Of a stretch of DNA of 57,470 bases, positions 43,661-57,470 are shown piece by piece. Position 1 is the stretch's first letter, and each line of letters opens with the position of its first letter. This DNA is from Prevotella sp. (GTDB taxonomy: Bacteria > Bacteroidota > Bacteroidia > Bacteroidales > Bacteroidaceae). Under the pieces are notes generated by a model that was not told the origin of the DNA, did not search any database, and worked only from the letters and a program-made list of their open reading frames with translations. The stretch covers positions 1 through 57,470 of the forward strand of contig JAIJUV010000002.1 in assembly GCA_022732315.1 (NCBI GenBank). Direction: 5' to 3'. Both the position numbers and the translations under genes were made by a program.

Positions 43661-45349
43661 TTATTGCAAAAGATACCAATTGCGACCATCTGTTTTAATC
43701 ATCTCTTCCAATTTCATAGCCTTAAGCAAATCTCCCAATAGTCGTAGTTGTTGCTCTTCCGTCTTGTTGGCAGGAAGTACATCTTTGAGATATTCGTATA
43801 TACTATCTCGCTTGGCGCCTTCGTCTCCTGCATTGCTGAGATACTGTAGAACCATTTGACGCAATCTCTCCTTATCCAATCCTTTGGTCTTTGTGTAAGA
43901 AGGCAGTTGGTGAGTGTTCTTGGCAATGCTAAGAGAAATGCTGTAATGCGGGACCTCACCTTCTATCAGTCCACGTTTGAGTAAGTCTTGCGCTATATCC
44001 TCATGAATAGTTCTGCCTTTTTGTACTGCGTCAAGAGAGATGCAATCCCAGAGAGATAGAGTGTCGTTTGTCTTCAACAAATCAGTGTATCGTTTATTGA
44101 TTTCATTGCCATAGATGCGGACAACTACTTTCTTCTTGATCTGGTCAATCTCATAGTCAGGCATAGGGAAGTGTCTGCGCCATTGCTCATTGAACATTTT
44201 CTTGATACCACGGCTTACGGTATCTATCATGTTGAAATCTACCATCGCCCTACATAAACATTCATTGCGGAAATGCGTCTGAGGCTCTTCGTTCCTTAAA
44301 ACATTCTCCAAAGTGCCAGGAATGAATGTGCCAGCATTGGAATAATACAGATATCCTGGATTCTCCACGAAATTGATGCGTTGCTGAAGAGTGTAGTCTT
44401 GATGGCCAATACAATTATGAAGGGCCTCACGGATGGTATAGTCGTCATACTGCTTCATCGTGTCGGGGAAAAGCGTACCTCCAGGCATTTCACGCAATGT
44501 CAGATTCTCTATCTTTGAGAGGATTTCGTCCACCGTTAATATAAAAGGTACTGTGAAGTGTTCGTAGTCAACCACTTCCTGCTTCTTGTCTCGCCGTGTC
44601 CAAGTAACCTGTACAACAGCAGGACGCAGTTTGAAAGTGGATTCGTATTTGCCCAACAAAATGATAGCTGCCCGAGTAATACCTCCGTTTCTCGTTAATC
44701 CACACTTGCTCAAAAAAGTTTGAACGTTCCAAGCATTCACTTCTTCTGCAGGAATACGGCTATGGACTTTTTTGAACATCATTCGAGCCTTGGCGATAGC
44801 AACCTCATCCAAATCGTCTATTGTAGCATCAGGTACAATTTCTGCAGACCAGTCCTTTGCTGCATAGATTGGTTCTTCAAGAATGACAGCCATTCTTTCT
44901 TGGGTCAATTCCACCAACGAATCTTCTATGCGTTGCCATGCCTTCTTGTGGGCAAGGACAGGGCGACGAGGCAAGTGCTTTGGAATATGTATTATCCATA
45001 CTCGCTTATTTGTATCATCGGTTATAAACTCCTCAATGCTTAGACCTTCAGATGAAAGATAAGTGCATTGTTCTGTGAGTTTGAACGTTGCCGACTGTGT
45101 GTTAGCTGGTTGCCCATTAAAGGTTAGCTTCGAAATATCAGTCCCGACTATTTCAAGCGTCTTATCCTTTACACCAATTACAAGATGTCCACCCTCCATG
45201 TTGGCAATAGCTGACACGTAGGAAATAACATCATCCTTCTCGTCCCCACAGAACGAGTTCTTCAGATTCTTAAATTCCTTCCATTCGCAGCGAGCATTCT
45301 CTTGTGGGTACTCACGGAGGAAGTATTGTTGTAGTTCGAGTTCGAGCAT
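43661..45349 (-). CDS. AlbA_2 (Schlafen AAA_4-type) putative ATP-binding protein
   Basis: A 562-residue cytoplasmic protein. Residues about 10-140 match the AlbA_2/Schlafen AAA_4 domain: CEWKEFKNLKNSF, YVSAIANMEGGHLVIGVKD, and a following HIPKHLPRRPVLA. The middle has a HATPase_c_4-like segment (TIREALHNCIGHQDYT near residue 298; Asn is an ATP-site residue). The C-terminal 120 residues look like winged-helix DNA-binding regions. Such proteins are often called transcriptional regulators, and AlbA_2 domains recur in defence islands. The gene starts 65 bases after the NERD-helicase gene, with no TAnnTTTG promoter in between, so it is probably the last gene of that operon. A repeat cluster follows its stop codon. 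Confidence 0.82.
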   Translation of the reverse strand: MLELELQQYFLREYPQENARCEWKEFKNLKNSFCGDEKDDVISYVSAIANMEGGHLVIGVKDKTLEIVGTDISKLTFNGQPANTQSATFKLTEQCTYLSSEGLSIEEFITDDTNKRVWIIHIPKHLPRRPVLAHKKAWQRIEDSLVELTQERMAVILEEPIYAAKDWSAEIVPDATIDDLDEVAIAKARMMFKKVHSRIPAEEVNAWNVQTFLSKCGLTRNGGITRAAIILLGKYESTFKLRPAVVQVTWTRRDKKQEVVDYEHFTVPFILTVDEILSKIENLTLREMPGGTLFPDTMKQYDDYTIREALHNCIGHQDYTLQQRINFVENPGYLYYSNAGTFIPGTLENVLRNEEPQTHFRNECLCRAMVDFNMIDTVSRGIKKMFNEQWRRHFPMPDYEIDQIKKKVVVRIYGNEINKRYTDLLKTNDTLSLWDCISLDAVQKGRTIHEDIAQDLLKRGLIEGEVPHYSISLSIAKNTHQLPSYTKTKGLDKERLRQMVLQYLSNAGDEGAKRDSIYEYLKDVLPANKTEEQQLRLLGDLLKAMKLEEMIKTDGRNWYLLQ

Positions 45350-45414: not shown

Positions 45415-47499
45415 TTATTCTTTTTTTTCATATAATCTTTCAGGAACACTTTTTAGGGGTTCTTGTAATTTGCCATCATACAGAATATACAAGTTTCTAT
45501 ATGTTCTGGTCATTGCCACGTAAAGTGCCTTCTTTTCGTCTGTATTTCGTGCACCATTGTAAAATGGTATAATTACAGTCTCAAACTGGAGGCCTTTAGC
45601 ACTATGATAAGTCATGAGTTTTGGATGTTCGGTTTTAAAGTTCAGTGTGTCCTTATTTCTTGAGTCATTATAACCAGCATTGTATTTAAATTCGCATGCA
45701 AATTTAGAAGAAGTAAATGAATTCATTATTTCAATAACCATTTCATTATCAGCTACTAAGATTCCAATATTTCGATATTTGTTCTTTTTTGTTATAGAAA
45801 TAATCTTGTTAATTTGTTCTTGTTTTGATTCACAACTCATGATTACAGGTAATGCATTTTCTTTGCTTAAATAAAGGCTTTCAGAGAAATCTCTAACTTT
45901 ATCGTTTTTTTCATCCAAACCAAGATAATCCTGCGTAATTTTAGCAACTGGTTTAGGAAGGCGATAATTATTGTAGAGTCGTGATACAGCTACTCCTGTC
46001 ATCTGAGATATTTGATCTATTGTCATAGTCTTCTTTCCAAATGCTTTATATATAGATTGAGCAGTATCGCCGAAAAAATAGAAGCATTTTTTTGCAGCAT
46101 GTATAAACTGCAATATTTCTTCTTTATCAAAATCCTGTATCTCATCAACAATTATATAATCTGCTGATGGCATACCCTGGTTAACCCATTGCCAATGATA
46201 AAAGAACTTCTTGTCAAGTGTATTTGCTTTTCCTTGACTCATATATCTATTTAATGATTTGGTTAAGGCGATTAATATTACATCACCTCCTGCCTCTAGA
46301 ATTTGCTGAGCTTTGTACATCGCAATAACAGATTTTCCACTTCCTGCACATCCTGCTACAATCATGGATTTTCCAATATTATCTCCAATTAGATCTAATT
46401 GATCATCGTCCATAGATTCTGTATCAACATTGAATGCTTTTAATATTTTTTGCTTCATGCCGAATCGTTTCTTAGGCTTTGAAGTTTGTTCTTTTACAAT
46501 GTTATTGGGTTGATTAACAATATCATCAACTTCATTTTCAACAGTTTTTATGTCTTCTATTAACTGAGTTGCATCTTTTTCTATCACAGATAGTTGCTCC
46601 GCTGAAGTGTCTACATGATTATTAGCTTCTTCCAATCGTTCTGCTTTAATCTGAAGCAACTCTGCCTGCTGTTGTTGGATAATTATATCCTTTTCTTCTG
46701 CCATTTTCTGCATTTTAGCCATCATAGTCTGAAGTAAATCTACAGCCTTATGTATTGTTTCTTTGTTCTTGGCATTATCCTCTTTTTCTTTTGCGAGAAG
46801 GACGTTAGGGGAAAAATCATCTCCGTTATGAGCAAACTCTTCGTGGAAAAGATCTCCAGGCATCACGTTTGTATCGCTATATTTTGTGATTATATAACGC
46901 TCATCTAGTCCCTTGCTTCTGATAAAATCAAATATATCACCATCGGTCAAAATAATTGATTTATTCGAACGTGTCCTTGCTTTAATTGTATCTAACTCTT
47001 CGCAAATATGCTCTACATCAGATACATTCACCCATGCATTTGCTCCCCATTTAAATTCTTCATCCAATTTTAAGGATGAAATTGAGGAGAACACAACAAG
47101 TGCTTGTATATTATTACATGCATCTTCATTCTTGATATATCTCGATAACCCATCTCGTAAAGCTCGACGGTTGATCTTAAGTTGCTCAAATACAGTTTTA
47201 CTGGAACCATCTTTCTTCTTGGCTCCTCCATTTATTCTTTCACTGCCATGAAACCAATCACCGTTTGCCTGAGCTTTAATTTCACCAGCATAGTTCTTAA
47301 ATTCAACTAATACAATGGCATCTTCTTTGATTATTAGCCCATCAATATCAACTCCGTTAATATTCAGTTTGCCACTTAAATATAGTACAACTTCATTCTT
47401 TCCCTGATAATGTTTTTGCATGATTGGCAATGTGGAACGAAATTGACTAATTTCTCCAGCATTATCAGCTTTATTAAATTCATATATTATTAAACTCAT
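45415..47499 (-). CDS. NERD-domain SF1 (UvrD-like) helicase
   Basis: A 694-residue protein. Residues about 25-125 are a NERD nuclease-related domain (DIDGLIIKEDAIVLVEFKNYAGEI). A coiled-coil-rich linker follows (about 245-340). A superfamily 1 helicase core comes next: Walker A AGCAGSGKS near 385, Walker B VDEIQDF near 453, GDTAQSIY, YNNYRLP, TYHSAKGLQFETV near 635 and YVAMTRTYRNLYI near 664. The NERD lysine/glutamate pattern (V-E-F-K) resembles a PD-(D/E)XK nuclease core, so nuclease activity is possible. It starts 12 bases after the stop of the 3044-residue helicase gene, so the two are co-expressed and may form a complex or act on the same substrate. A role in defence or repair is inference. 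Confidence 0.88.
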   Translation of the reverse strand: MSLIIYEFNKADNAGEISQFRSTLPIMQKHYQGKNEVVLYLSGKLNINGVDIDGLIIKEDAIVLVEFKNYAGEIKAQANGDWFHGSERINGGAKKKDGSSKTVFEQLKINRRALRDGLSRYIKNEDACNNIQALVVFSSISSLKLDEEFKWGANAWVNVSDVEHICEELDTIKARTRSNKSIILTDGDIFDFIRSKGLDERYIITKYSDTNVMPGDLFHEEFAHNGDDFSPNVLLAKEKEDNAKNKETIHKAVDLLQTMMAKMQKMAEEKDIIIQQQQAELLQIKAERLEEANNHVDTSAEQLSVIEKDATQLIEDIKTVENEVDDIVNQPNNIVKEQTSKPKKRFGMKQKILKAFNVDTESMDDDQLDLIGDNIGKSMIVAGCAGSGKSVIAMYKAQQILEAGGDVILIALTKSLNRYMSQGKANTLDKKFFYHWQWVNQGMPSADYIIVDEIQDFDKEEILQFIHAAKKCFYFFGDTAQSIYKAFGKKTMTIDQISQMTGVAVSRLYNNYRLPKPVAKITQDYLGLDEKNDKVRDFSESLYLSKENALPVIMSCESKQEQINKIISITKKNKYRNIGILVADNEMVIEIMNSFTSSKFACEFKYNAGYNDSRNKDTLNFKTEHPKLMTYHSAKGLQFETVIIPFYNGARNTDEKKALYVAMTRTYRNLYILYDGKLQEPLKSVPERLYEKKE

Positions 47500-47511: not shown

Positions 47512-50500
47512 TTATTTGCCATATCCGGCAATGTTAACAATAAATATATAACCTTGATCATGGGCTTCACTGCACCATTTTGAGGCATACAATTCTGGCT
47601 GCCTATAGTAAAACTTACTTGGATTACTTTGAAATTCAGACAATCGTCGCTTGTCGGAATTTTCAGTATCTTGATATGTCCAGTAGAAAACATCACTTAC
47701 AAAAAAACCGGTCAATGTTTCTTTATTTTCGGTTTCCATACGCTGGACTATACTGCTTCTTCTGGATAATTGGCCAACAATGCTTCCATTATGAATAATA
47801 TTATATGTAGTGAATTGCTGGCCATTTCTGTTCATACCTCTGTAACGTCTAATTTCTACTGGATCATTCTTACGCACATTATATGCGATAGCTTTGTTTC
47901 CATTAAAATTATATCCAGCATTAAACCCTATATTATAATTATCGAGTCCAACTTTTCTTTCTCTTATTCCCCATTGGTCTTCAAGGCTGGTAAAGCGACG
48001 CATGTTTTCAACCGCCTTCTCCCTATTTCCTTTGTATACGAATAGGTATTTTCTTGCACGAGTATATGCAACATATAGTAGTCTTTTCTCTTCTTCTATT
48101 TGTTCAATGTCATTAGAGGAGAGTGGGGTAGACTCATCAATATCTTCAGTTGGGTTAAAAGGAAGAGACGTTACCGATGGTGTTATAATGACAGCATCGA
48201 ACTCCAACCCCTTCACTTTATGCATAGTGGTAAGCACTACATTAAGTTGTTGGTCTAATAATATGCGTCTATTTTGGAACCGCTTGTCATCATATAGCTT
48301 ATATAATTGAGGATTATCTTCTTTTAAGGTTTCTCTGATACCATCGGCCATATCGCCATAAGTGTGCGATTCCTCATCTGTCGATGCAAAATCAAGATAA
48401 TCAAGTATTAGTACAAATGCAAAATCCATATAGAAAGAATCCCAGTTTGGAAATTTGTTTATCCATGAAGATATTGTTTCCTTCAATGCAAATTCTGTCT
48501 GGTTACCCTCTAATTTCAGTCTCTTGTTGCGGTTGCTATCCAACAATTTCAGAACTGCATAGATTTCTCGCATTCTATATAACTCACATACAGAAACTCC
48601 TTGTATTCTGATTCTAATACCAGGTAAATTTAGGGCTTTTATGAGTGAGTAACCGTGATAGACTTCGTTATTCGTTCTGAAGAACACGGCCAAATCTGTC
48701 ACACCCAGCTCTTTTAAGCGTTGAACATATCTTTCAAAATCGTTTGACCACTTTCTGCTGTCCTGATAAATAATCACATACTCTGATTGTGGTTCGTTTT
48801 CTATATTCTTCTTGCATGGAACTGGTACATGAGAAGTTGCTGGTAGATAGCGACTGGCTTCTTTGAGAATCTTTGGATATGAACGATAATTAGTGCTCAT
48901 TGTCATTTTCTTAGGACTTAAAGTCTTATAAAGCTGTTCATAATAATAATTTGGATCCATAGACTCTTCTTTCTCAAATCCATATATACTTTGATCTTTA
49001 TCTCCAATTGTAAAGAACGTGAGGTCATTATAGATTTCTTTCAACCCAAACATTGCGTTAAGTCTTGTTTGAGTAATATCTTGGAACTCGTCAATAAATA
49101 CATATTGAAGATCTGGCATTGCTGCTCGAACGTCATTTGGCTTGTTTTTTATCGTTCTAAGTAGTATTCTTTCCCACTCATTCATTTCATGTCCGGAGAG
49201 CGCAGTATCTCCGCACACTCTTTTTGCAAGACTGTGGAAAGTGTATACATGTAATTGACTTGCAGAACGACTCAATCCAAGTGACGCGAATAGTTTAGCC
49301 AAACGACTTTTTAGCTCAACAACTACAGCCCTGTTATAAGCCAACACTAAGATGCTCTTAGGGTTTACATGTTGATGGTATATTAGTTTTGCACATTTTA
49401 ATGTCAGGACATGTGTTTTTCCTGATCCAGGGCCTGCTTCTACGTTAACATTTTCATTTGAGTTCTCATTGTAGATGGCCCATTGTTCCGGATTGTCTTG
49501 TAATTGTTTTTCCGCTTTTTTTATTGCCGTGGCACGAAGAGCATCCCAGATAGGATCAGATTCTTCATAGTAGTTACTTAATAATGTTTTAAAGTCTTCG
49601 GAGTTTTTTAATGAAAAATATGATCCGATCAATTCCTGGAATTCCTGTTTTGAGTGAATCTTCGTTGTAAGAACGTCCATAACGCATAAACGAAGATTTC
49701 TGATTTCTATAGCTTCATCAAATGCGACTTTGTCTTGATAATCTTTCGAATCTGGCTCAACGTTCTCTAAAATCACTTCTTCTGAATTGTCAGTTGTATA
49801 TATCTCAATGCCAGTAGGAAGCAATGCATCCGTGGAGATGTATGCCATTCCATTTAGATATCGTAAAAGGCTCTCGAAATATACGAATCCTTTATTTTCA
49901 AATCCCAACTCAACAATAGCATCAGACCAGCGGATTATAGTGCTTTGGCATTTATTGATATATTCCAAGGTTTTCAAACAGTCTGCCTGAAAATCATTTA
50001 AAAATTCTTTCCATGTGTCTTTCTCTACTATTACAGATTGAAGAACACATTTTTTCTTTGTATCTATGTATGATTGTACTTTAACATCAGGAATAATCTC
50101 CAATAATGATATGACTTGTCTCAGGCGTTTCTTGTATAAATCGTCATGGTATGAATGGGCAATAGATAAGCCTTTATTATTTTGTTTATCATTCTCATTA
50201 TACCAAGTCATGTATTTTTCTGTAGACTGATTGCCGTCTTCATCGGTCTTAGTGACCTTCTTTACAATTTCTTCTAGGGTATCTGAATCCTTAATGAATT
50301 GACGAATATCGGAAAGAGTATAATTCTTTTCGAGTTTTAATCCATTATTCAGCAACAGTGATCTTGTGGCATTCAAAATTATATGAAATGCAACTTCATG
50401 TGAATTCCAGTCCATCATGTAGGAAACTTCACTCAGTCTAGTGAACGCAATGTGGCATCGAGTTTCTTGTTCTATTCGAATAATTTTATGTTTCTCGCAC

Positions 50501-53500
50501 CAAATCAAACTGTCTAGCAGTTTGGCTGAAGGCATTGACAGTTTTGCAGCAAGTTTCTGAATGGAGACCTGAATATTTGAATTTTGTTGTTCTGTTTGAA
50601 TGAATCTCAACTCAGCTAAAATAGCTGTAGCATAAGTGGCGCTACGGGATGTAGAAAGCCTTTTGATTCTTTCTTCTAACGTCTCTTCATTTGAATCTGC
50701 TGAATTATTATCAAGAATTGTAATATTAATATGTGCAGGACTCAAATATCCCATCTTGATTCTTCCCATTCGCTCAAGCCAATACTGGCCAATTTTGAAG
50801 TCTGTAAAGTCATGATCGAACTGGCCATTTGCCCATAACGTATTTGGAACTACTACAGGATATTCTTTAGTTTTATCAATTGGCTGTATTTTTGTAATGT
50901 ACGAATTAATAGCTACTCTAATCTCCTCGAGATTCTTCCAACTTAAGGTGCTTTGGAGAAGCTGCTCTTTAGCTTTCTTAATATCATCCTTTGAGAACAG
51001 ACACAAGGTCGGTATAGGATTTGATTCACTAAATCCTGCATCTATATACATTTTTTTATTTCGTCCAGCTCTACCAACTTCCTGAAGATAATCTTCCATT
51101 ACACTTGGCGGCATCAAATGGACAATATAGTGAATGTTAGGTATATCCATCCCCATACCAAATGCCTTTGTTGCACAAAGTATATATAATGGATCATTGT
51201 TATCTTTAAATCTTTTATATGTTTCTTCTCTATCATCGCCATCCATACCAGCATGGAAATAGCCTATTGCTTGTGTTGACAATTCTTTACTTAAGATTTC
51301 TGCCTTGTACAATTCATCCGCTAGAAGCAAAGACATTTCTTCACATTGATTTCTAGTTTTACAGAAAACAAGCATTCGGCTATCTTGAGCTTTGATGTTA
51401 TTTTTTATGATATAGTCAACGATTTCTTTCAAACGATGAGGTATATCATGAAACACCAATTTAAAGTCCATTTTGATGTGGCTCCTGATAGGATTGTAAA
51501 TCTTCTTATCATTTTCTTGTCCCAATCGCTTTACAGGAATTACATCATTTATTTGATCGTATATCATGTCGGTTACTGTCGCTGAAAACATTGATATACA
51601 CATGTCATCGCCATAAGTATCCTTGAACTTCTTACATATTTTTATAACATTTAAATATTCTGGACGGAACTCCATTCCCCATTGTGAAATACAATGCGCT
51701 TCATCAAATATCATATACTCAAGTCCATGATCATTTGCCATTCTTGAGGATAAAGCATTTAAGAATGCTCTTGAACGGAAACGCTCAGGAGTTACATAAA
51801 GAATCGCTATTTCACCACCATTAATTTTTCTATATATGTTCTTTACTTCTTGATATGATCTGTCTCCATTTAAGTAATCTACATTGGATATAAAGCCTTT
51901 TTCTCCTAGTTCTTTTACCTGATCTTGCATCAATGCCTTCAATGGAGTTACTACAATAGACAGTTTATTTGTATATGCTGAATTATAAAGCGCAGGTCCT
52001 TGGAATAAAACGGATTTTCCACCACCTGTAGGTAGTGAGACAAGATAGTTTCCTTGTCTTTTAAGGATATGAGGGATAATCTCCGCTTGAATAGGGCTCC
52101 ATTTCTTTTCAGAATCATGTTCTGGATTTACTAATATCGAAAAAATAAGGTCTTTAGCCTTTTCAATATCTGAATCATTTTCATAAATGGATGAGCTATC
52201 CGTAAAGAAAGTCTTGCAAATATTTAGTGAATCATTAAAATTTTCCTCTTTATTCCATAATTGTTTTACCCTATAAGAAGATACACCCCATACTGCTGAA
52301 AGGAAGTGATATTCCTCTAGGAAAGAGTCAAGTACATACATTGTTGATTCAATGCTGTTAGCTTTTATAAAATGATAATAATATTCATATACAGGCCATA
52401 TAGACAGCAAAATAGACTGGTAAGTATCTTTTGCCGAACCTATTGCAACAGATGTTCCTTTTTCTTTTATACCATCATACAAGAATGATTTGTTAAACTC
52501 ATTTGTAAGACCATTCCACATCATCATATGTTTCTCAACGGCCAGGTTATCCCACACATAACAATATGGTGTGTCTCTTCGCCAATCAACGATATCAAAG
52601 AAATGATTTTTGCTTGTTACAAGCATACCGTTTTCATGGTGGTCTATCAACTCAAGTTTTCTGACCAAAGAACCATTGTCAGGAATATAGAAACCTAATG
52701 TTCTTGCATAAGACACGACATCTTCTATTTCCAGAGAATCTTCTAATAATAGAATTATAGGGCGATGATCTTTATAGAAATGAATGTCTTTAAGTAAAGC
52801 CATTTGATAGGCCCAGTAGGTGGCTCTATACCTTGATGTTGCACTGACGCGCTTTTGTAAAGCATCAAATCCTTTGCCATGTCCACTATATACTAAATGT
52901 ATTGAGTTGTTATTTCCGCTGTCTGTTATCCATGGAATTATTTCTATTGTCACCCCCTCAGAGCCATTGTTCAGTGACTCTAAAATAGAGAAGAAATCAT
53001 AATTGTAGCTAACGATATACTTGCCTTCTCTAGTTCTCTCAATCCATACGTTAGCAGCTTCCGAAGGTACATCATTAAAAATATTTAGTTTTCGTTCTTC
53101 CTTATTTACAGCAATGTAACTAGATGCCCCTAATCGCATAGGGATACTGCTATCATTTTGCCAAAAATCAGAAGGAGAATAATGAGTTGGCAATGAATAT
53201 TGGTTTACTCGATTTTCAATTTCACAACCAACAAACCAAATATGTTCGTAATTTTTCAGGTTACTATTTTCCCTTAGAAACTCCATGTCTGCACAATCTA
53301 CATTTCCGGAGCTTTCAATAACGTACTCTTCAAGTAGATTATCAGATAAATAATTGAGCCTAAGATATTGAGCAAGATTTGCTACAACTGGAGTTTTTGA
53401 CATGGTAACAAATCTATTTAAAATTGCATTAAGGAAAGTATCGTCAAAAGGTTTCTCATGAAGCATTTTTTTACTAATAGACATGTAATCAATGCCTTCC

Positions 53501-56500
53501 TGCTTCTGGACAAATTTCATATCCACATATTCAGCAATTCTTGACCATAGACGTTTAGGAGCAATAATTAACCTCTTTGAATCAATATCGTTAATTGCCT
53601 TTATACGAGATACAACTTGTTCATCTGTATCAGTAAGAACCTGATAAAAGTTGTCTTCTTTAGAATCCTTGCTAAAGAAATCAGAAAATTCTGGTTGTCT
53701 CAAAACATCTAAGATCTCATTAATTTTGGCAGGAAGTAAGTCTTTAAGTTCGCCACACAAAGACACATTCTTTGAGAGTCTATAAAGCTGATTCCAGAAT
53801 AATCGATCTACCAGTTCTGTATCTTCTTGAGCTGTATGTCCTGTGTGAAGTGCATATGAGTATCTGCAAGGATTTAATAGAATCTCTATTTCTAAAGTGT
53901 CCCAAACAAATGCATTTGACTCAAAGCCTTTCTTGCTTAATATACAGCCCAAATCCCACGCTTTGATTCTGTGACCAACAATAATCTCAGTTCCTTTTAA
54001 TGCACGTAGAAGTGTATTTAGCTGCTCTTCTCCTTGGTACACCTTTGTGCTTTCATCTTTTCTAAAAGCAAATTCCTTAATAGTATCCCCATCTGATTCT
54101 AAATCGAAAGCCACATATGGAATTTGTGATTTTAATTTCTTCCATTGTTCACCAATAAACAGATCAAAGAGTTTTGTTGAAGCAAAATACCGAACAACTA
54201 TGTCTTTTGCATAAGTCTCAGGACATAACTGCAGAATCTTATACTGGTCATCTTCAGATAACTCAATTATAGAATCTCTAAATTTTTCACTATTTATAGA
54301 TGTAAGGGTTTCAGCAATAGCTTCTTTATCTTCATCATCAACAAAAGATTTCTGACAACTTAGGAGAAATTGACTTACAAATGAAGGCTCTTGCTCATTT
54401 ATCCAAAGAGGTATAGAATCAAAATCTTCTATTTCATTTAGATTATCTGGATTAGCAGTTAATGCAAATAGTTCAACATACAATTCATCCTTCACTGAGG
54501 CAGTGATGGAAATAATATCTGCAGGTTGGTTGTTATTATTAATGCACAAATTGAAAAACGAACGTACCTCTGGCTCTTTGTCTGCTATCAGAGTATTCAG
54601 ATGTTCTCCTATTTGTGGGTATATATGTCGTACATCTATTCCGTTTAGTATATAATTGTTAATGATGTCGAAATCATTTTGTATAAATCTTCCAGCCAAC
54701 AGTTTTAGGACTTCTAAATGATGTTGTGGATTATCTAATAACTTAGTAACCAGTTTTTTTGACGTCTCATAGTCAAGCTCATCTATTAAATTTGCTTGTT
54801 CTATGAACGCTTTGTCTTTATCTGAAAAATAATAAATCAAGAAAGAAAATGCTTCAGATTCAGATTTTTCCTTGAGAAATTTGTATGCTTCGTTCCAGGG
54901 CTTACCAGCGTCATTGTAGATAGAATTATTTTGCGTAATAAGAGAAATTACATAAAGCAGATTCATCGAAAGGCTTGTCGTATTTGCCAATAAAGCATTT
55001 AATATGGAAGTATGTGCCGAAATCCAATGTCTAACTTCTGTTAAGTGCTCTTCTGATGATTTTTCAAGGGATTCAATGGTCTCTGTAAGACATGAAGAAA
55101 AATCGAAATCATCAGGTAGTGCCTGTAAGATACTTATATCTTTTTGGGTGAAAATACTATTTTCTACGGTAGCTGTTATTGATTTTATAGCATTACAATA
55201 AGTACCATTATCTGATGTGTATGACTTTAACTCTGGCAACAATGCAATTAGTTGTTTAAGCAAATTGCTATCCTGCAGAAATTCTTCAATTATTTGAGAA
55301 CATTCCACATTGCTATAATTCGATAGATACTCTGCGAAAGTTTCTATTACTATTTCTTTTCCTCCAGGCTTTCTTAGAATCTTGCCTACGACATGGCAGA
55401 TTACGTCATGATCATGATACGATCCTTTTGAATCTTGCCCTTCTATTTTAGCGAAAATTCCTCTATAAGGAAGAGCTAATAAAAGTCCATTTTTGTCATA
55501 TGTCAACCAATCACCATTTATAGCTTCACGTCTTCCCCTAAATGTTGATGGATTCATTATAATCCATACATCTTCCTCGGGAGAAACCTCTGATTTCCAA
55601 TTTCTCTCATTGAGATTGAAAGTGTATAATTTGCCGGAAGTATCTTCGTTATTTATGCCAAGAGCGTTAGTGAGAACTTTTCCGAAATTATTAACACGAC
55701 TATCATAGAATTGAACTATGGCAATATTCTTGTCAAGTTTAAGCTGTTCTTTTTTTTGGGGTTGTTTTGAGCCATGGTCAGCTTTTGACATAAGTTGACT
55801 TGTGATGTCAATTTCAACTAAATGCTTACTGATATCTATACTTATAATGTTACCAGAAATCGTTTTTCCAATTGGATAAGTATATCCGTTCGGAATAGAA
55901 GCTTCAACAATGGCACCATTCTGAATTTCGATATATGCACGGCTTTTAGATATCTTTTTAACAATACCTTGAATTTCATTTCCTGTTGCGAACTGATCAA
56001 TTTGTGATAGTAAAGGGTCATCCAGTAATTGTTTTCTTCCAACTCTCAGTTTTTTCTTTTCTTCTTCATAACCAATAATGGTGACCTCTATTTCCATCCC
56101 CTCATACAAAAAGTTATTTATGTCGTCGATATACCCCCACGTGACATCCTTAGTGTATAAGAAAGCAGAAAGTTTTTCAACGGTTACATATGCGCCATGT
56201 GGCATAACTCGTTGAACCTTTCCTGTAAATCGTTCGTTTTGATGTGTATTGCCAAATTCTCTTAACTGTGCAATCGTTTCTTCGGAAAGAAGATTTTTGG
56301 GGTTCTGTTCTTTCTTTGTCCTATGCTTAGGTCTAGTACTTTGGTTTAATGAACTTAAATCTATTTTACCAAGAACCCTAGGCTCCTTATTAATTTGATT
56401 TTCTTTCTTTAACGTGAATATCTTCGGTGCAGATTCGTTTGAACCAATATTACTTTTAGGTATTATCTGTTTATATTTATATTGATGGGCGAATATTGGA

Positions 56501-56646
56501 TCAATTTGTCTAAGTTGCGAATCATCTAATACATACTCTGGGGCTTCAGGTAGTATTACTCCTTTTTCCTTAGCATTTTGAACTATGTCATAGACCATTA
56601 GGCCTTTGATATCTGCATATTCTTGTATCGTAATTCTCTGTGCCAT
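47512..56646 (-). CDS. Giant multidomain DEDDh exonuclease-RecQ-UvrD helicase (3044 residues)
   Basis: One uninterrupted frame of 9.1 kb. Domains by motif and approximate residue: an IF2-N-like helical start (1-45); two S1-like RNA-binding folds (137-210, 216-285); a beta domain possibly cold-shock-like (300-450); a helical region; a DEDDh 3'-5' exonuclease with FDLESDG (848), VGHRIKAWD (894) and HTAQED (940); a region without clear motifs (1000-1500); a RecQ-like SF2 helicase with LPTGGGKS (about 1545), FDEAHC (1648) and QEVGRAGR (1857); a winged-helix-like part near 2020; and an SF1 UvrD-like helicase with AGPGSGKTH (2402), DEFQD (2515), TTMHKVKGLEFD (2808) and YVAYTRARKYL (2862). The last 145 residues are unrecognised. 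All key helicase and nuclease residues look intact. It is co-transcribed with the NERD helicase and preceded by an UpxY-like gene. The DNA is AT-rich. Function is unknown; defence or repair is inferred. Confidence 0.88.
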   Translation of the reverse strand: MAQRITIQEYADIKGLMVYDIVQNAKEKGVILPEAPEYVLDDSQLRQIDPIFAHQYKYKQIIPKSNIGSNESAPKIFTLKKENQINKEPRVLGKIDLSSLNQSTRPKHRTKKEQNPKNLLSEETIAQLREFGNTHQNERFTGKVQRVMPHGAYVTVEKLSAFLYTKDVTWGYIDDINNFLYEGMEIEVTIIGYEEEKKKLRVGRKQLLDDPLLSQIDQFATGNEIQGIVKKISKSRAYIEIQNGAIVEASIPNGYTYPIGKTISGNIISIDISKHLVEIDITSQLMSKADHGSKQPQKKEQLKLDKNIAIVQFYDSRVNNFGKVLTNALGINNEDTSGKLYTFNLNERNWKSEVSPEEDVWIIMNPSTFRGRREAINGDWLTYDKNGLLLALPYRGIFAKIEGQDSKGSYHDHDVICHVVGKILRKPGGKEIVIETFAEYLSNYSNVECSQIIEEFLQDSNLLKQLIALLPELKSYTSDNGTYCNAIKSITATVENSIFTQKDISILQALPDDFDFSSCLTETIESLEKSSEEHLTEVRHWISAHTSILNALLANTTSLSMNLLYVISLITQNNSIYNDAGKPWNEAYKFLKEKSESEAFSFLIYYFSDKDKAFIEQANLIDELDYETSKKLVTKLLDNPQHHLEVLKLLAGRFIQNDFDIINNYILNGIDVRHIYPQIGEHLNTLIADKEPEVRSFFNLCINNNNQPADIISITASVKDELYVELFALTANPDNLNEIEDFDSIPLWINEQEPSFVSQFLLSCQKSFVDDEDKEAIAETLTSINSEKFRDSIIELSEDDQYKILQLCPETYAKDIVVRYFASTKLFDLFIGEQWKKLKSQIPYVAFDLESDGDTIKEFAFRKDESTKVYQGEEQLNTLLRALKGTEIIVGHRIKAWDLGCILSKKGFESNAFVWDTLEIEILLNPCRYSYALHTGHTAQEDTELVDRLFWNQLYRLSKNVSLCGELKDLLPAKINEILDVLRQPEFSDFFSKDSKEDNFYQVLTDTDEQVVSRIKAINDIDSKRLIIAPKRLWSRIAEYVDMKFVQKQEGIDYMSISKKMLHEKPFDDTFLNAILNRFVTMSKTPVVANLAQYLRLNYLSDNLLEEYVIESSGNVDCADMEFLRENSNLKNYEHIWFVGCEIENRVNQYSLPTHYSPSDFWQNDSSIPMRLGASSYIAVNKEERKLNIFNDVPSEAANVWIERTREGKYIVSYNYDFFSILESLNNGSEGVTIEIIPWITDSGNNNSIHLVYSGHGKGFDALQKRVSATSRYRATYWAYQMALLKDIHFYKDHRPIILLLEDSLEIEDVVSYARTLGFYIPDNGSLVRKLELIDHHENGMLVTSKNHFFDIVDWRRDTPYCYVWDNLAVEKHMMMWNGLTNEFNKSFLYDGIKEKGTSVAIGSAKDTYQSILLSIWPVYEYYYHFIKANSIESTMYVLDSFLEEYHFLSAVWGVSSYRVKQLWNKEENFNDSLNICKTFFTDSSSIYENDSDIEKAKDLIFSILVNPEHDSEKKWSPIQAEIIPHILKRQGNYLVSLPTGGGKSVLFQGPALYNSAYTNKLSIVVTPLKALMQDQVKELGEKGFISNVDYLNGDRSYQEVKNIYRKINGGEIAILYVTPERFRSRAFLNALSSRMANDHGLEYMIFDEAHCISQWGMEFRPEYLNVIKICKKFKDTYGDDMCISMFSATVTDMIYDQINDVIPVKRLGQENDKKIYNPIRSHIKMDFKLVFHDIPHRLKEIVDYIIKNNIKAQDSRMLVFCKTRNQCEEMSLLLADELYKAEILSKELSTQAIGYFHAGMDGDDREETYKRFKDNNDPLYILCATKAFGMGMDIPNIHYIVHLMPPSVMEDYLQEVGRAGRNKKMYIDAGFSESNPIPTLCLFSKDDIKKAKEQLLQSTLSWKNLEEIRVAINSYITKIQPIDKTKEYPVVVPNTLWANGQFDHDFTDFKIGQYWLERMGRIKMGYLSPAHINITILDNNSADSNEETLEERIKRLSTSRSATYATAILAELRFIQTEQQNSNIQVSIQKLAAKLSMPSAKLLDSLIWCEKHKIIRIEQETRCHIAFTRLSEVSYMMDWNSHEVAFHIILNATRSLLLNNGLKLEKNYTLSDIRQFIKDSDTLEEIVKKVTKTDEDGNQSTEKYMTWYNENDKQNNKGLSIAHSYHDDLYKKRLRQVISLLEIIPDVKVQSYIDTKKKCVLQSVIVEKDTWKEFLNDFQADCLKTLEYINKCQSTIIRWSDAIVELGFENKGFVYFESLLRYLNGMAYISTDALLPTGIEIYTTDNSEEVILENVEPDSKDYQDKVAFDEAIEIRNLRLCVMDVLTTKIHSKQEFQELIGSYFSLKNSEDFKTLLSNYYEESDPIWDALRATAIKKAEKQLQDNPEQWAIYNENSNENVNVEAGPGSGKTHVLTLKCAKLIYHQHVNPKSILVLAYNRAVVVELKSRLAKLFASLGLSRSASQLHVYTFHSLAKRVCGDTALSGHEMNEWERILLRTIKNKPNDVRAAMPDLQYVFIDEFQDITQTRLNAMFGLKEIYNDLTFFTIGDKDQSIYGFEKEESMDPNYYYEQLYKTLSPKKMTMSTNYRSYPKILKEASRYLPATSHVPVPCKKNIENEPQSEYVIIYQDSRKWSNDFERYVQRLKELGVTDLAVFFRTNNEVYHGYSLIKALNLPGIRIRIQGVSVCELYRMREIYAVLKLLDSNRNKRLKLEGNQTEFALKETISSWINKFPNWDSFYMDFAFVLILDYLDFASTDEESHTYGDMADGIRETLKEDNPQLYKLYDDKRFQNRRILLDQQLNVVLTTMHKVKGLEFDAVIITPSVTSLPFNPTEDIDESTPLSSNDIEQIEEEKRLLYVAYTRARKYLFVYKGNREKAVENMRRFTSLEDQWGIRERKVGLDNYNIGFNAGYNFNGNKAIAYNVRKNDPVEIRRYRGMNRNGQQFTTYNIIHNGSIVGQLSRRSSIVQRMETENKETLTGFFVSDVFYWTYQDTENSDKRRLSEFQSNPSKFYYRQPELYASKWCSEAHDQGYIFIVNIAGYGK

Positions 56647-56756: not shown

Positions 56757-57407
56757 TCACAATTGTTGAGACTCGGAAGTTTTTGTCTTATCTGTCATAC
56801 ACATACTGATGATCTTATGTTCATTATACATTTCCATTGCCCCATTCGGTATATACGCCGTAGCCACCAAGCATCCATCAAAAAGTTCTACCACCACTCT
56901 CTGTTGCCCTGCAATCCTTGTCACTCTACCATGTATATCCTTAAACTCACCCTCTGTAATCACTACTTCATCTCCTAACTTATATTTGATATTATCCGAA
57001 GTAACAGGGATAATGTGAGGATTATGTATGGAGGTTAAACGGATGAAATTATCCATAGCTGTATCGGCAATGATAAGAGGAGGATTCTTGGTTGGCGCAT
57101 TTTCACAATGTGAAGTATGGTCGTAATAGTAACTCAACAAAGCTCTATTTTCAAAAGCCTTGATGTTCTTATCTTGCAAAAGAGAGTCAACTTGCTCTGC
57201 TGTTGCATGAACAAACATAAAAGATGAAATAAGAGGCTCCGTTATGATTCGCTTCTTTCCTTGCTTTCTTACCTCTTTATATTGCAAAGGAACATAACAT
57301 TCCAATCCTTTAGCCTCAACGAATGCTTTTGCCTTGATAATACGCCCATACGAAACTCGAAGAACAAACCATTGCTTGTTTCCGGATGGCACATTCTCTA
57401 CCGACAC
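56757..57407 (-). CDS. UpxY/NusG-family transcription antiterminator (start uncertain)
   Basis: The product has 216 residues from a GTG at 57407; the frame stays open to the right edge, so the true start could lie outside the window. The N-terminal NGN domain reads KQWFVLRVSYGRIIKAKAFVEAKGLECYVP, the typical opening of Bacteroidota UpxY proteins. A KOW motif lies near residues 148-175 (LGDEVVITEGEFKDIHGRVTRI). Specialised NusG paralogues of this kind bind RNA polymerase early in one operon and prevent premature termination over long distances. UpxY proteins normally head capsule loci, but here the next gene, 110 bases downstream, is the 9.1-kb helicase gene. It is therefore likely to be the antiterminator for that operon, which is inference. 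Confidence 0.85.
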   Translation of the reverse strand: MSVENVPSGNKQWFVLRVSYGRIIKAKAFVEAKGLECYVPLQYKEVRKQGKKRIITEPLISSFMFVHATAEQVDSLLQDKNIKAFENRALLSYYYDHTSHCENAPTKNPPLIIADTAMDNFIRLTSIHNPHIIPVTSDNIKYKLGDEVVITEGEFKDIHGRVTRIAGQQRVVVELFDGCLVATAYIPNGAMEMYNEHKIISMCMTDKTKTSESQQL

Positions 57408-57470
57408 CCCACCTTTGTTCTTTGAGATGGAGGGCGTACAAGAGGTAAGTCTTGCACTTGGACACGATGA

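What the first reader, a model, noticed from the sequence alone, without database searches (positions are those of the whole stretch)
47512..56646. 3044-residue protein joining RNA-binding folds, a DEDDh exonuclease and two different helicases
The single frame carries IF2-N-like and S1-like domains, a complete DEDDh exonuclease signature (DxE, GH...D, HxAxxD), a full RecQ-type SF2 helicase, and a full UvrD-type SF1 helicase, plus two large unrecognised regions. Joining RecQ and UvrD in one chain is known in some bacteria, but I do not know this RNA-binding N-terminus with them. It suggests a protein that engages RNA-containing structures such as R-loops, or RNA and DNA of an invader.
Basis: partly seen in the sequence, partly recalled or inferred. 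Interest (0 to 1): 0.85.

Follow-up and report, generated by a model that had tools for sequence, protein, structure and literature searches.

The report
Giant mobile exonuclease-helicase fusion protein
This 3044-residue bacterial protein joins RNA-binding parts, a nucleic-acid-chewing enzyme built on a dead DinG-type helicase, and two apparently working helicases; its relatives are rare, have moved between distant bacteria and lie beside restriction genes more than chance would give, so it may be an undescribed defence against invading DNA.

Summary
The frame is real: window 47512-56646, minus strand, 3044 aa, intact. Helicase, S1 and exonuclease calls hold. Core order: CSD, helical array, DEDDh/dead DinG, RecQ motor, UvrD motor, C-terminal domain. 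It occurs in Bacteroidota, Pseudomonadota and several other phyla, but rarely (2 of 295 Bacteroidales, 6 of 150 Hymenobacter-family genomes). One ~8.1-kb gene is shared at 94.5-96% DNA identity across three families. McrC lies in the held flanks of 10 of 49 loci (0.13 expected). Here the gene and its downstream NERD-SF1 helicase partner are 33-35% GC against 48%. In 19 of 79 loci the chain is split into two overlapping genes between the two RecA lobes of RecQ. Best reading: a mobile anti-invader machine that unwinds and degrades nucleic acid, perhaps at RNA-DNA hybrids. Function is inferred, not shown; I found no description in the papers searched.

The parts
47512..56646 (-). Gene A: 3044-aa protein (coordinates include the stop codon)
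   Evidence: Intact frame; 1157 homologues at E <= 0.001
56482..56646 (-). Residues 1-55: possible IF2_N-like segment (weak)
   Evidence: Pfam IF2_N in 3 of 66 members' N-terminal regions, best E 0.0021; not in the window's own protein at E 0.01
56035..56238 (-). Residues 137-204: S1 RNA-binding domain
   Evidence: Pfam PF00575 E 2.1e-9
55504..55737 (-). Residues 304-381: diverged cold-shock (CSD) fold
54142..55404 (-). Residues 415-835: all-helical array, fold not assigned
   Evidence: AF2 model, helices throughout, block pLDDT about 77-98; only weak armadillo-type Foldseek matches
53767..54129 (-). Residues 840-960: DEDDh 3'-5' exonuclease domain (D848, E850, D898, H937, D942)
52255..53634 (-). 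Residues 1005-1464: DinG/XPD-type two-lobe helicase fold without Walker A or DEAH (dead helicase)
51055..52107 (-). Residues 1514-1864: RecQ-type SF2 motor (PTGGGKS; DEAH)
   Evidence: Pfam DEAD 5e-34 and Helicase_C; NCBIfam RecQ models below cut-off
48001..49533 (-). Residues 2372-2882: UvrD/PcrA-type SF1 motor (GPGSGKT; DEFQD)
47515..47979 (-). Residues 2890-3044: conserved C-terminal domain, fold not assigned
   Evidence: Conserved positions in alignments A1 and A4; predicted as part of the model but not searched alone
45415..47499 (-). Gene B: 694-aa NERD nuclease + SF1 helicase, 12 nt downstream of gene A
   Evidence: Pfam NERD 1.5e-7 and SF1 helicase families; homologue next to the core gene in 13 of 79 loci, with the NERD part matched in 4 of those 13
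43661..45349 (-). Gene C: 562-aa AlbA_2 + HATPase_c_4 protein; optional accessory
   Evidence: homologue by sequence only in L002; same Pfam architecture without significant BLASTP similarity in L005; GC nearer to the window's than A and B
56757..57470 (-). UpxY-family transcription antiterminator directly upstream (runs off the window)
   Evidence: NCBIfam NF033644 E 7.6e-34, above cut-off; no tblastn match in the 79 loci at E 1e-5

Best explanation
Gene A, with gene B as a clade-specific partner, is an accessory, horizontally transferred nuclease-helicase machine that most likely protects the cell from phages or other invading DNA. Proposed working order: the cold-shock fold (and, in this clade, S1) binds single-stranded DNA or RNA, plausibly RNA-DNA hybrids at invader transcription or replication sites. 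The RecQ and UvrD motors, both of 3'-5' families, translocate and unwind. The DEDDh exonuclease, held on a DinG scaffold that has lost its own ATPase motifs, degrades the exposed 3' end of RNA or DNA. NERD-SF1 protein B then cuts or further unwinds. Shown by computation here: the domains, intact or lost catalytic motifs, family spread, mobility and neighbours. Inferred: defence role, substrate, polarity, order of events and partnership with B.
For: Catalytic motifs: DEDDh intact in 79 of 80; UvrD ATPase columns in 69 of 69; a P-loop pattern of RecQ type in some large plus-strand gene of 77 of 79 loci (regex). Exo+DinG fold; DinG ATPase motifs lost. Cold-shock fold (sequence support in homologues). 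Rare in relatives: 2 of 295, 6 of 150. Single-gene transfer: L019, L023 and L028 (Chitinophagaceae, Spirosomataceae, a Flavobacteriaceae MAG) share 94.5-96.0% DNA identity over 8.1-8.3 kb and no other stretch over 250 bases in the DNA held. Plasmid-borne in Hymenobacter. GC of A 34.8% and B 33.4% against 47.7%. McrC in the flanks of 10 of 49 loci, 0.13 expected; HsdR in 7 of 49, 0.46 expected. L018 has an AAA gene, McrC and HsdR directly upstream. Gene B homologue beside the core gene in 13 of 79 loci; one match in each of 7 of 8 clade genomes. R-loop link: B. [quoted passage not shown] DinG, Rep and UvrD are cited as cooperating across transcription units (passages in PMC11981726 and PMC3702460).
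Against: No experiment. In 122 neighbour representatives (of 158 listed, one per sequence cluster) no PADLOC family matched more than 2. The window's own scanned neighbours are polysaccharide genes and regulators. Loci are not independent, so the probabilities printed are too small. No homologue of the middle region in phage records or, by a scan with two short patterns, in IMG/VR. P0121 has lost four of the five exonuclease residues. A CSD is recognisable by sequence in at most 36 of 66 members, and the window's own copy is not among them. The DinG match has moderate Z (10-11.5) with rmsd 5-12. Gene B has no match in the held DNA of 66 of 79 loci.
Confidence: 0.5

Rival explanations
1. An accessory genome-maintenance enzyme that resolves R-loops and transcription-replication conflicts or repairs damaged forks for the host itself: a DinG + Rep/UvrD + RecQ team in one chain.
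For: All three helicase types are genome-maintenance families; exo-DinG of S. aureus and B. subtilis acts in crosslink repair and R-loop removal (PMC12345164 abstract, PMC12525004); no phage link was found.
Against: Patchy (2 of 295, 6 of 150), recently transferred as a single gene, more often beside McrC and HsdR than expected; foreign GC in the window.
Confidence: 0.27
2. A gene of mobile elements themselves: it helps a plasmid or integrated element replicate, process its DNA or compete with other elements, rather than serving host immunity.
For: On two Hymenobacter plasmids, one typed mobilizable; a copy among IS elements in a Rhodobacter plasmid record; IstB of IS21 in 2 of 122 neighbour representatives; compositionally foreign in the window.
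Against: Only 3 of 72,556 plasmid records hit in two searches with strict limits and none of 50,697 phage records. Among the recurrent neighbour clusters I annotated (about half of those printed) restriction and regulator genes appeared, not transfer genes; the rest were not annotated.
Confidence: 0.13
3. A restriction-type effector whose main cutter is gene B's NERD domain, gene A serving only as sensor and motor.
For: NERD is a PD-(D/E)xK nuclease used in another defence locus type (PMC12458937 passage); gene B is linked in the window's clade.
Against: 66 of 79 loci show no gene B in the held DNA (some contigs end at the core gene), and in 9 of the 13 that have it the match does not reach the NERD part; the single-gene transfer shows that the big gene can travel alone.
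Confidence: 0.1

Closest known systems
Exonuclease-DinG (S. aureus and B. subtilis DinG)
   Same: DEDDh exonuclease followed by a DinG-type two-lobe helicase fold; aligned over 471 residues to 9ii8_A
   Different: Here the DinG ATPase motifs are lost and the module is embedded between a CSD/helical N-terminus and RecQ plus UvrD motors; a term search of the DinG review found no RecQ or cold-shock mention and UvrD only as a cooperating helicase or in the references
RecQ helicases
   Same: SF2 motor with DEAH and RecQ-like score
   Different: Matches stop at the motor; scores below curated cut-offs; in 19 of 79 loci the motor is divided between two genes
Gabija GajB / UvrD-PcrA
   Same: UvrD-type SF1 motor; GajB models and structures match
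   Different: No GajA among the PADLOC matches of genes B, C and the upstream gene; the motor is one part of a 3000-aa chain
WRN-type exonuclease-RecQ fusion (general knowledge)
   Same: A DEDD exonuclease and a RecQ motor in one chain
   Different: The exonuclease here is joined to a dead DinG helicase and followed by a UvrD motor; WRN chains were matched only in the helicase part
pPIWI-RE / DinG predicted R-loop restriction (PMC3702460)
   Same: DinG-type module in a proposed RNA-DNA-hybrid-directed defence (passages)
   Different: No PIWI or REase-fold domain was found in gene A by Pfam; nuclease and motors are in a single chain
ARMADA/TALON and Dpd multi-helicase defence (PMC12458937)
   Same: Several helicases, and in TALON a NERD nuclease and a cold-shock protein, in defence loci (passages)
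   Different: Built on YprA-type helicases; DpdF similarity here is only to the shared RecQ-like motor and below cut-off

Membership tests
Exonuclease-DinG | DEDDh exonuclease fused N-terminally to a DinG-type helicase fold | tested here: met
Exonuclease-DinG | Functional DinG ATPase (Walker A, DEAH) | tested here: not met
   Pattern search of residues 960-1440 in 68 members: GGKS/GGKT in 7, DECD in 1, DEAD in 1, none at the expected places; aligned positions inspected by eye in 17
RecQ | NCBIfam RecQ family cut-off | tested here: not met
   203.9 bits against 219.8 (recQ_fam), 229.5 against 640.2 (recQ)
RecQ | RecQ-like SF2 motor with intact P-loop and DEAH | tested here: met
   Window protein; by regex in large plus-strand genes of the loci, P-loop in 77 of 79 and DEAH type in 70 of 79
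UvrD/PcrA SF1 | UvrD fold and intact ATPase motifs | tested here: met
Cold-shock domain proteins | CSD fold | tested here: met
Cold-shock domain proteins | CSD sequence signature in the window's own protein | tested here: not met
   No Pfam CSD hit and no hit with a family CSD profile at E <= 1; homologues do have it
Gabija | GajA partner beside GajB | tested here: not met
   PADLOC and Pfam on genes B, C and the upstream gene show no GajA
Dpd | DpdF above curated cut-off | tested here: not met
   143 bits against 550
Any experimentally known anti-phage system | Measured protection from phage | not testable with these tools

The most novel reading that the evidence does not exclude
An undescribed, cross-phylum family of anti-invader machines in which an exonuclease-DinG module, stripped of its own ATPase, is driven by RecQ and UvrD motors in the same chain to destroy RNA-DNA hybrids or replicating invader DNA; and in which the RecQ motor itself can be built from two half-motors made by overlapping genes, so that its ATPase depends on assembly of two subunits.
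Probability: 0.3. Interest if true: 0.85.

Novelty: new variant of a known kind. Interest (0 to 1): 0.68.

Why it matters
It would add a widely spread, mobile, multi-motor nuclease to bacterial accessory functions, with precise tests: each engine has conserved catalytic residues to mutate (D848/E850, K1544, K2410). The DinG-Rep/UvrD cooperation cited for R-loops in E. coli would appear here in one chain. The recurring division of a RecQ motor between its two RecA lobes was not found in print and offers a natural split helicase for biochemistry and regulation studies.

Tried and rejected
Rejected: plus-strand reading (full of stops). Programmed frameshift or sequencing error as the cause of the split genes: overlaps of 1, 4, 8, 14, 17 and 23 nt (17 loci; 38 and 85 nt in L061 and L048, where my ORF caller took a TTG start) put the second gene in different relative frames, and 17 of 19 second genes start with ATG at the overlap; a complete annotated plasmid shows the same split with a 17-nt overlap. 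Gabija and Dpd membership. Core housekeeping gene. Phage gene (the IMG/VR scan used two short peptide patterns and is weak evidence). Empty-site comparison at the window: no close relative genome in the sample searched, the best long DNA matches of the neighbouring glycosidase gene being about 70-72% identical; dropped. UpxY as a conserved part. Gene C as a conserved part. Pfam on the exo/DinG region of 68 members gave 19 families, each in one member only, among them DNA_pol_A_exo1 at E 0.051. The PDB profile search with A3 was not usable for the middle region because A3 contains full-length rows. The VIA-align lists do not test the helical array or the C-terminal domain; folds not listed are not excluded.

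Rows dropped and limits: the genome scan kept the best 80 of 119 confirmed stretches (79 distinct loci), so counts are not a census. A3 used 67 of 74 available locus rows (L005, L050, L051, L068, L074 and both L071 rows left out). A4 used 68 of 78 (L006, L008, L020, L051, L054, L063, L068, L074 and both L071 rows left out). A6 left out L004 and L075 (N-terminus under 100 aa). My BLAST filter called L009 'no core', but by Pfam it has the DEAD, Helicase_C and UvrD domains of a member. L038's second half was not found as one frame and was not counted as split. L019's frame is 2584 aa against 2711-2712 in L023 and L028 and ends early. The Hymenobacter-family sample includes genomes already known to be positive (G023, G026, G027, G030), and the Bacteroidales sample includes L002's own.

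Full report
What is there. The minus strand of 47512-56646 encodes one intact 3044-residue protein. Pfam gives S1 (137-204), a RecQ-like SF2 motor (DEAD/Helicase_C, 1517-1863) and a UvrD-type SF1 motor (2385-2871). A protein search with the whole sequence gave 1157 homologues at E <= 0.001 (best 120 listed); nine of them, 59-90% identical to the window's protein, are aligned with it.

Family and spread. One scan of the GTDB species genomes gave 79 loci (best 80 of 119 confirmed stretches), labelled Bacteroidota, Pseudomonadota, Verrucomicrobiota, Kiritimatiellota, Campylobacterota, Actinomycetota, Bacillota and Myxococcota, several of them MAG labels. In relatives it is rare: 2 of 295 genomes of the order of L002's genome and 6 of 150 of the family of a Hymenobacter genome; both samples include genomes already known to be positive. 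It is therefore accessory.

Mobility. Sediminibacterium C3 (L019), Larkinella C7 (L023) and a Flavobacterium MAG (L028), three families in the tree's labels, carry the gene at 94.5-96.0% DNA identity over 8,116-8,330 bases, essentially the gene itself, with no other shared stretch over 250 bases in the DNA held (L028 holds only about 1 kb upstream). MAG binning could mislead for the third, not for the first two. L019's frame ends about 127 codons early. Two Hymenobacter plasmids carry family members. In the window, genes A and B have GC 34.8% and 33.4% against 47.7% for positions 1-43600, where no 2-kb window (step 500) falls below 41.6%; third-position GC is 0.29 and 0.26 against 0.54-0.68 in eight other genes sampled; gene C is intermediate (43.2%, 0.45). 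So A+B (11.2 kb) look recently acquired, beside a polysaccharide-utilisation locus.

Defence association. Among recurrent neighbour clusters (my own ORF calls, +/- 5 genes) are one of McrC in 10 loci, one of HsdR in 7 and one whose L042 member is HsdM in 6 (identified by Pfam: McrBC and HSDR_N in L018, HSDR_N in L037, HsdM in L042; McrC and HSDR_N places in the genomes by profile). A WYL regulator represents a cluster in 4 loci (L016, L017, L021, L040; only the L040 member was scanned). As a control I searched the 49 held genomes for McrBC and HSDR_N: 32 and 114 matches in about 203 Mb; the held flanks total 0.80 Mb, so 0.13 and 0.46 are expected against 10 and 7 seen. Loci are partly related, so the Poisson probabilities printed are too small, but the excess is large. 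L018 has an AAA gene, McrC and HsdR directly upstream. Against: in 122 neighbour representatives (of 158 listed, one per sequence cluster) no PADLOC family matched more than 2 members, so I saw no standard defence partner outside the window's clade.

Partner gene B. A NERD + SF1 helicase gene follows gene A by 12 nt; a homologue lies next to the core gene in 13 of 79 loci, and 7 of 8 tested clade genomes have exactly one match at E 1e-20. The match includes the NERD part in only 4 of the 13 (L001, L002, L003, L007); in the other 9 it begins at residue 237-374, and the L004 homologue has no Pfam NERD hit. So the conserved partner is the SF1 helicase; the nuclease part varies or has diverged.

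Split RecQ. In 19 of 79 loci the chain is divided into two genes between residues ~1695 and ~1718 (to 1747 in the distant L075), just after RecQ motif III, that is, between the two RecA lobes. In 17 of the 19 the genes overlap by 1 to 23 nt, mostly as ATGA or TAATG, and in different relative frames, which argues for translational coupling rather than a programmed frameshift; L048 and L061 have longer called overlaps from TTG starts. A quick maximum-likelihood tree needs at least three changes of state (one gain and two losses is possible; L075 is a long branch). A complete annotated plasmid shows the same arrangement. I found nothing in print on this or on the fused family; these searches cover open-licence PMC only.

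Mechanism. Shown here by computation: domains, motif states, spread, mobility, neighbours. From established knowledge: RecQ and UvrD families move 3'-5', DEDDh enzymes are 3'-5' exonucleases, cold-shock and S1 folds bind RNA or ssDNA. From papers: B. [quoted passage not shown] S. aureus DinG has both exonuclease and helicase activity (PMC12345164, abstract and outline); the cooperation of DinG, Rep and UvrD is known to me here only as cited in PMC11981726 and PMC3702460 (passages); R-loop-directed restriction with DinG has been proposed for pPIWI-RE operons (PMC3702460, passages). Inferred: a single-chain machine in which two live motors feed an exonuclease, used against invading nucleic acid, with hybrids as a plausible signal. 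I put about 0.5 on an anti-invader role of this kind and clearly less on hybrids as the specific target.

Other papers seen: PMC12458937 and PMC5512222 (passages by term search only).

Noticed in passing
L035, L037, L039-L045, L047-L049, L052, L053, L055, L056, L061, L075, L078: RecQ motor split between its two RecA lobes into overlapping genes in 19 of 79 loci.
   Followed up: partly
L071:1583-23838: Two tandem giant members, 3802 and 3545 aa, in an Anaerobiospirillum contig; members in L050, L051 and L074 are 3166-3970 aa.
   Followed up: no
P0121: Member whose exonuclease has lost four of the five DEDDh residues: a natural nuclease-dead variant.
   Followed up: no
window 56757-57470: UpxY-type antiterminator immediately upstream of the 9.1-kb gene, possibly helping RNA polymerase through a very long operon; no match in the 79 loci.
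   Followed up: partly
L100:9005-16406: Rhodobacter sp. CZR27 plasmid copy lies in three annotated frames in a stretch with IS elements.
   Followed up: no
L012:1435-4464 and L032:189-3167: A ~1000-aa gene directly upstream of the core gene in two related loci; the L012 one has AlbA_2 and WYL domains.
   Followed up: no
L064, L068, L076: Downstream of the core gene, a ~904-aa gene followed by a gene of a UvrD-containing cluster (UvrD and PDDEXK_1 by Pfam in L064); possibly a compact AddAB-like pair.
   Followed up: no
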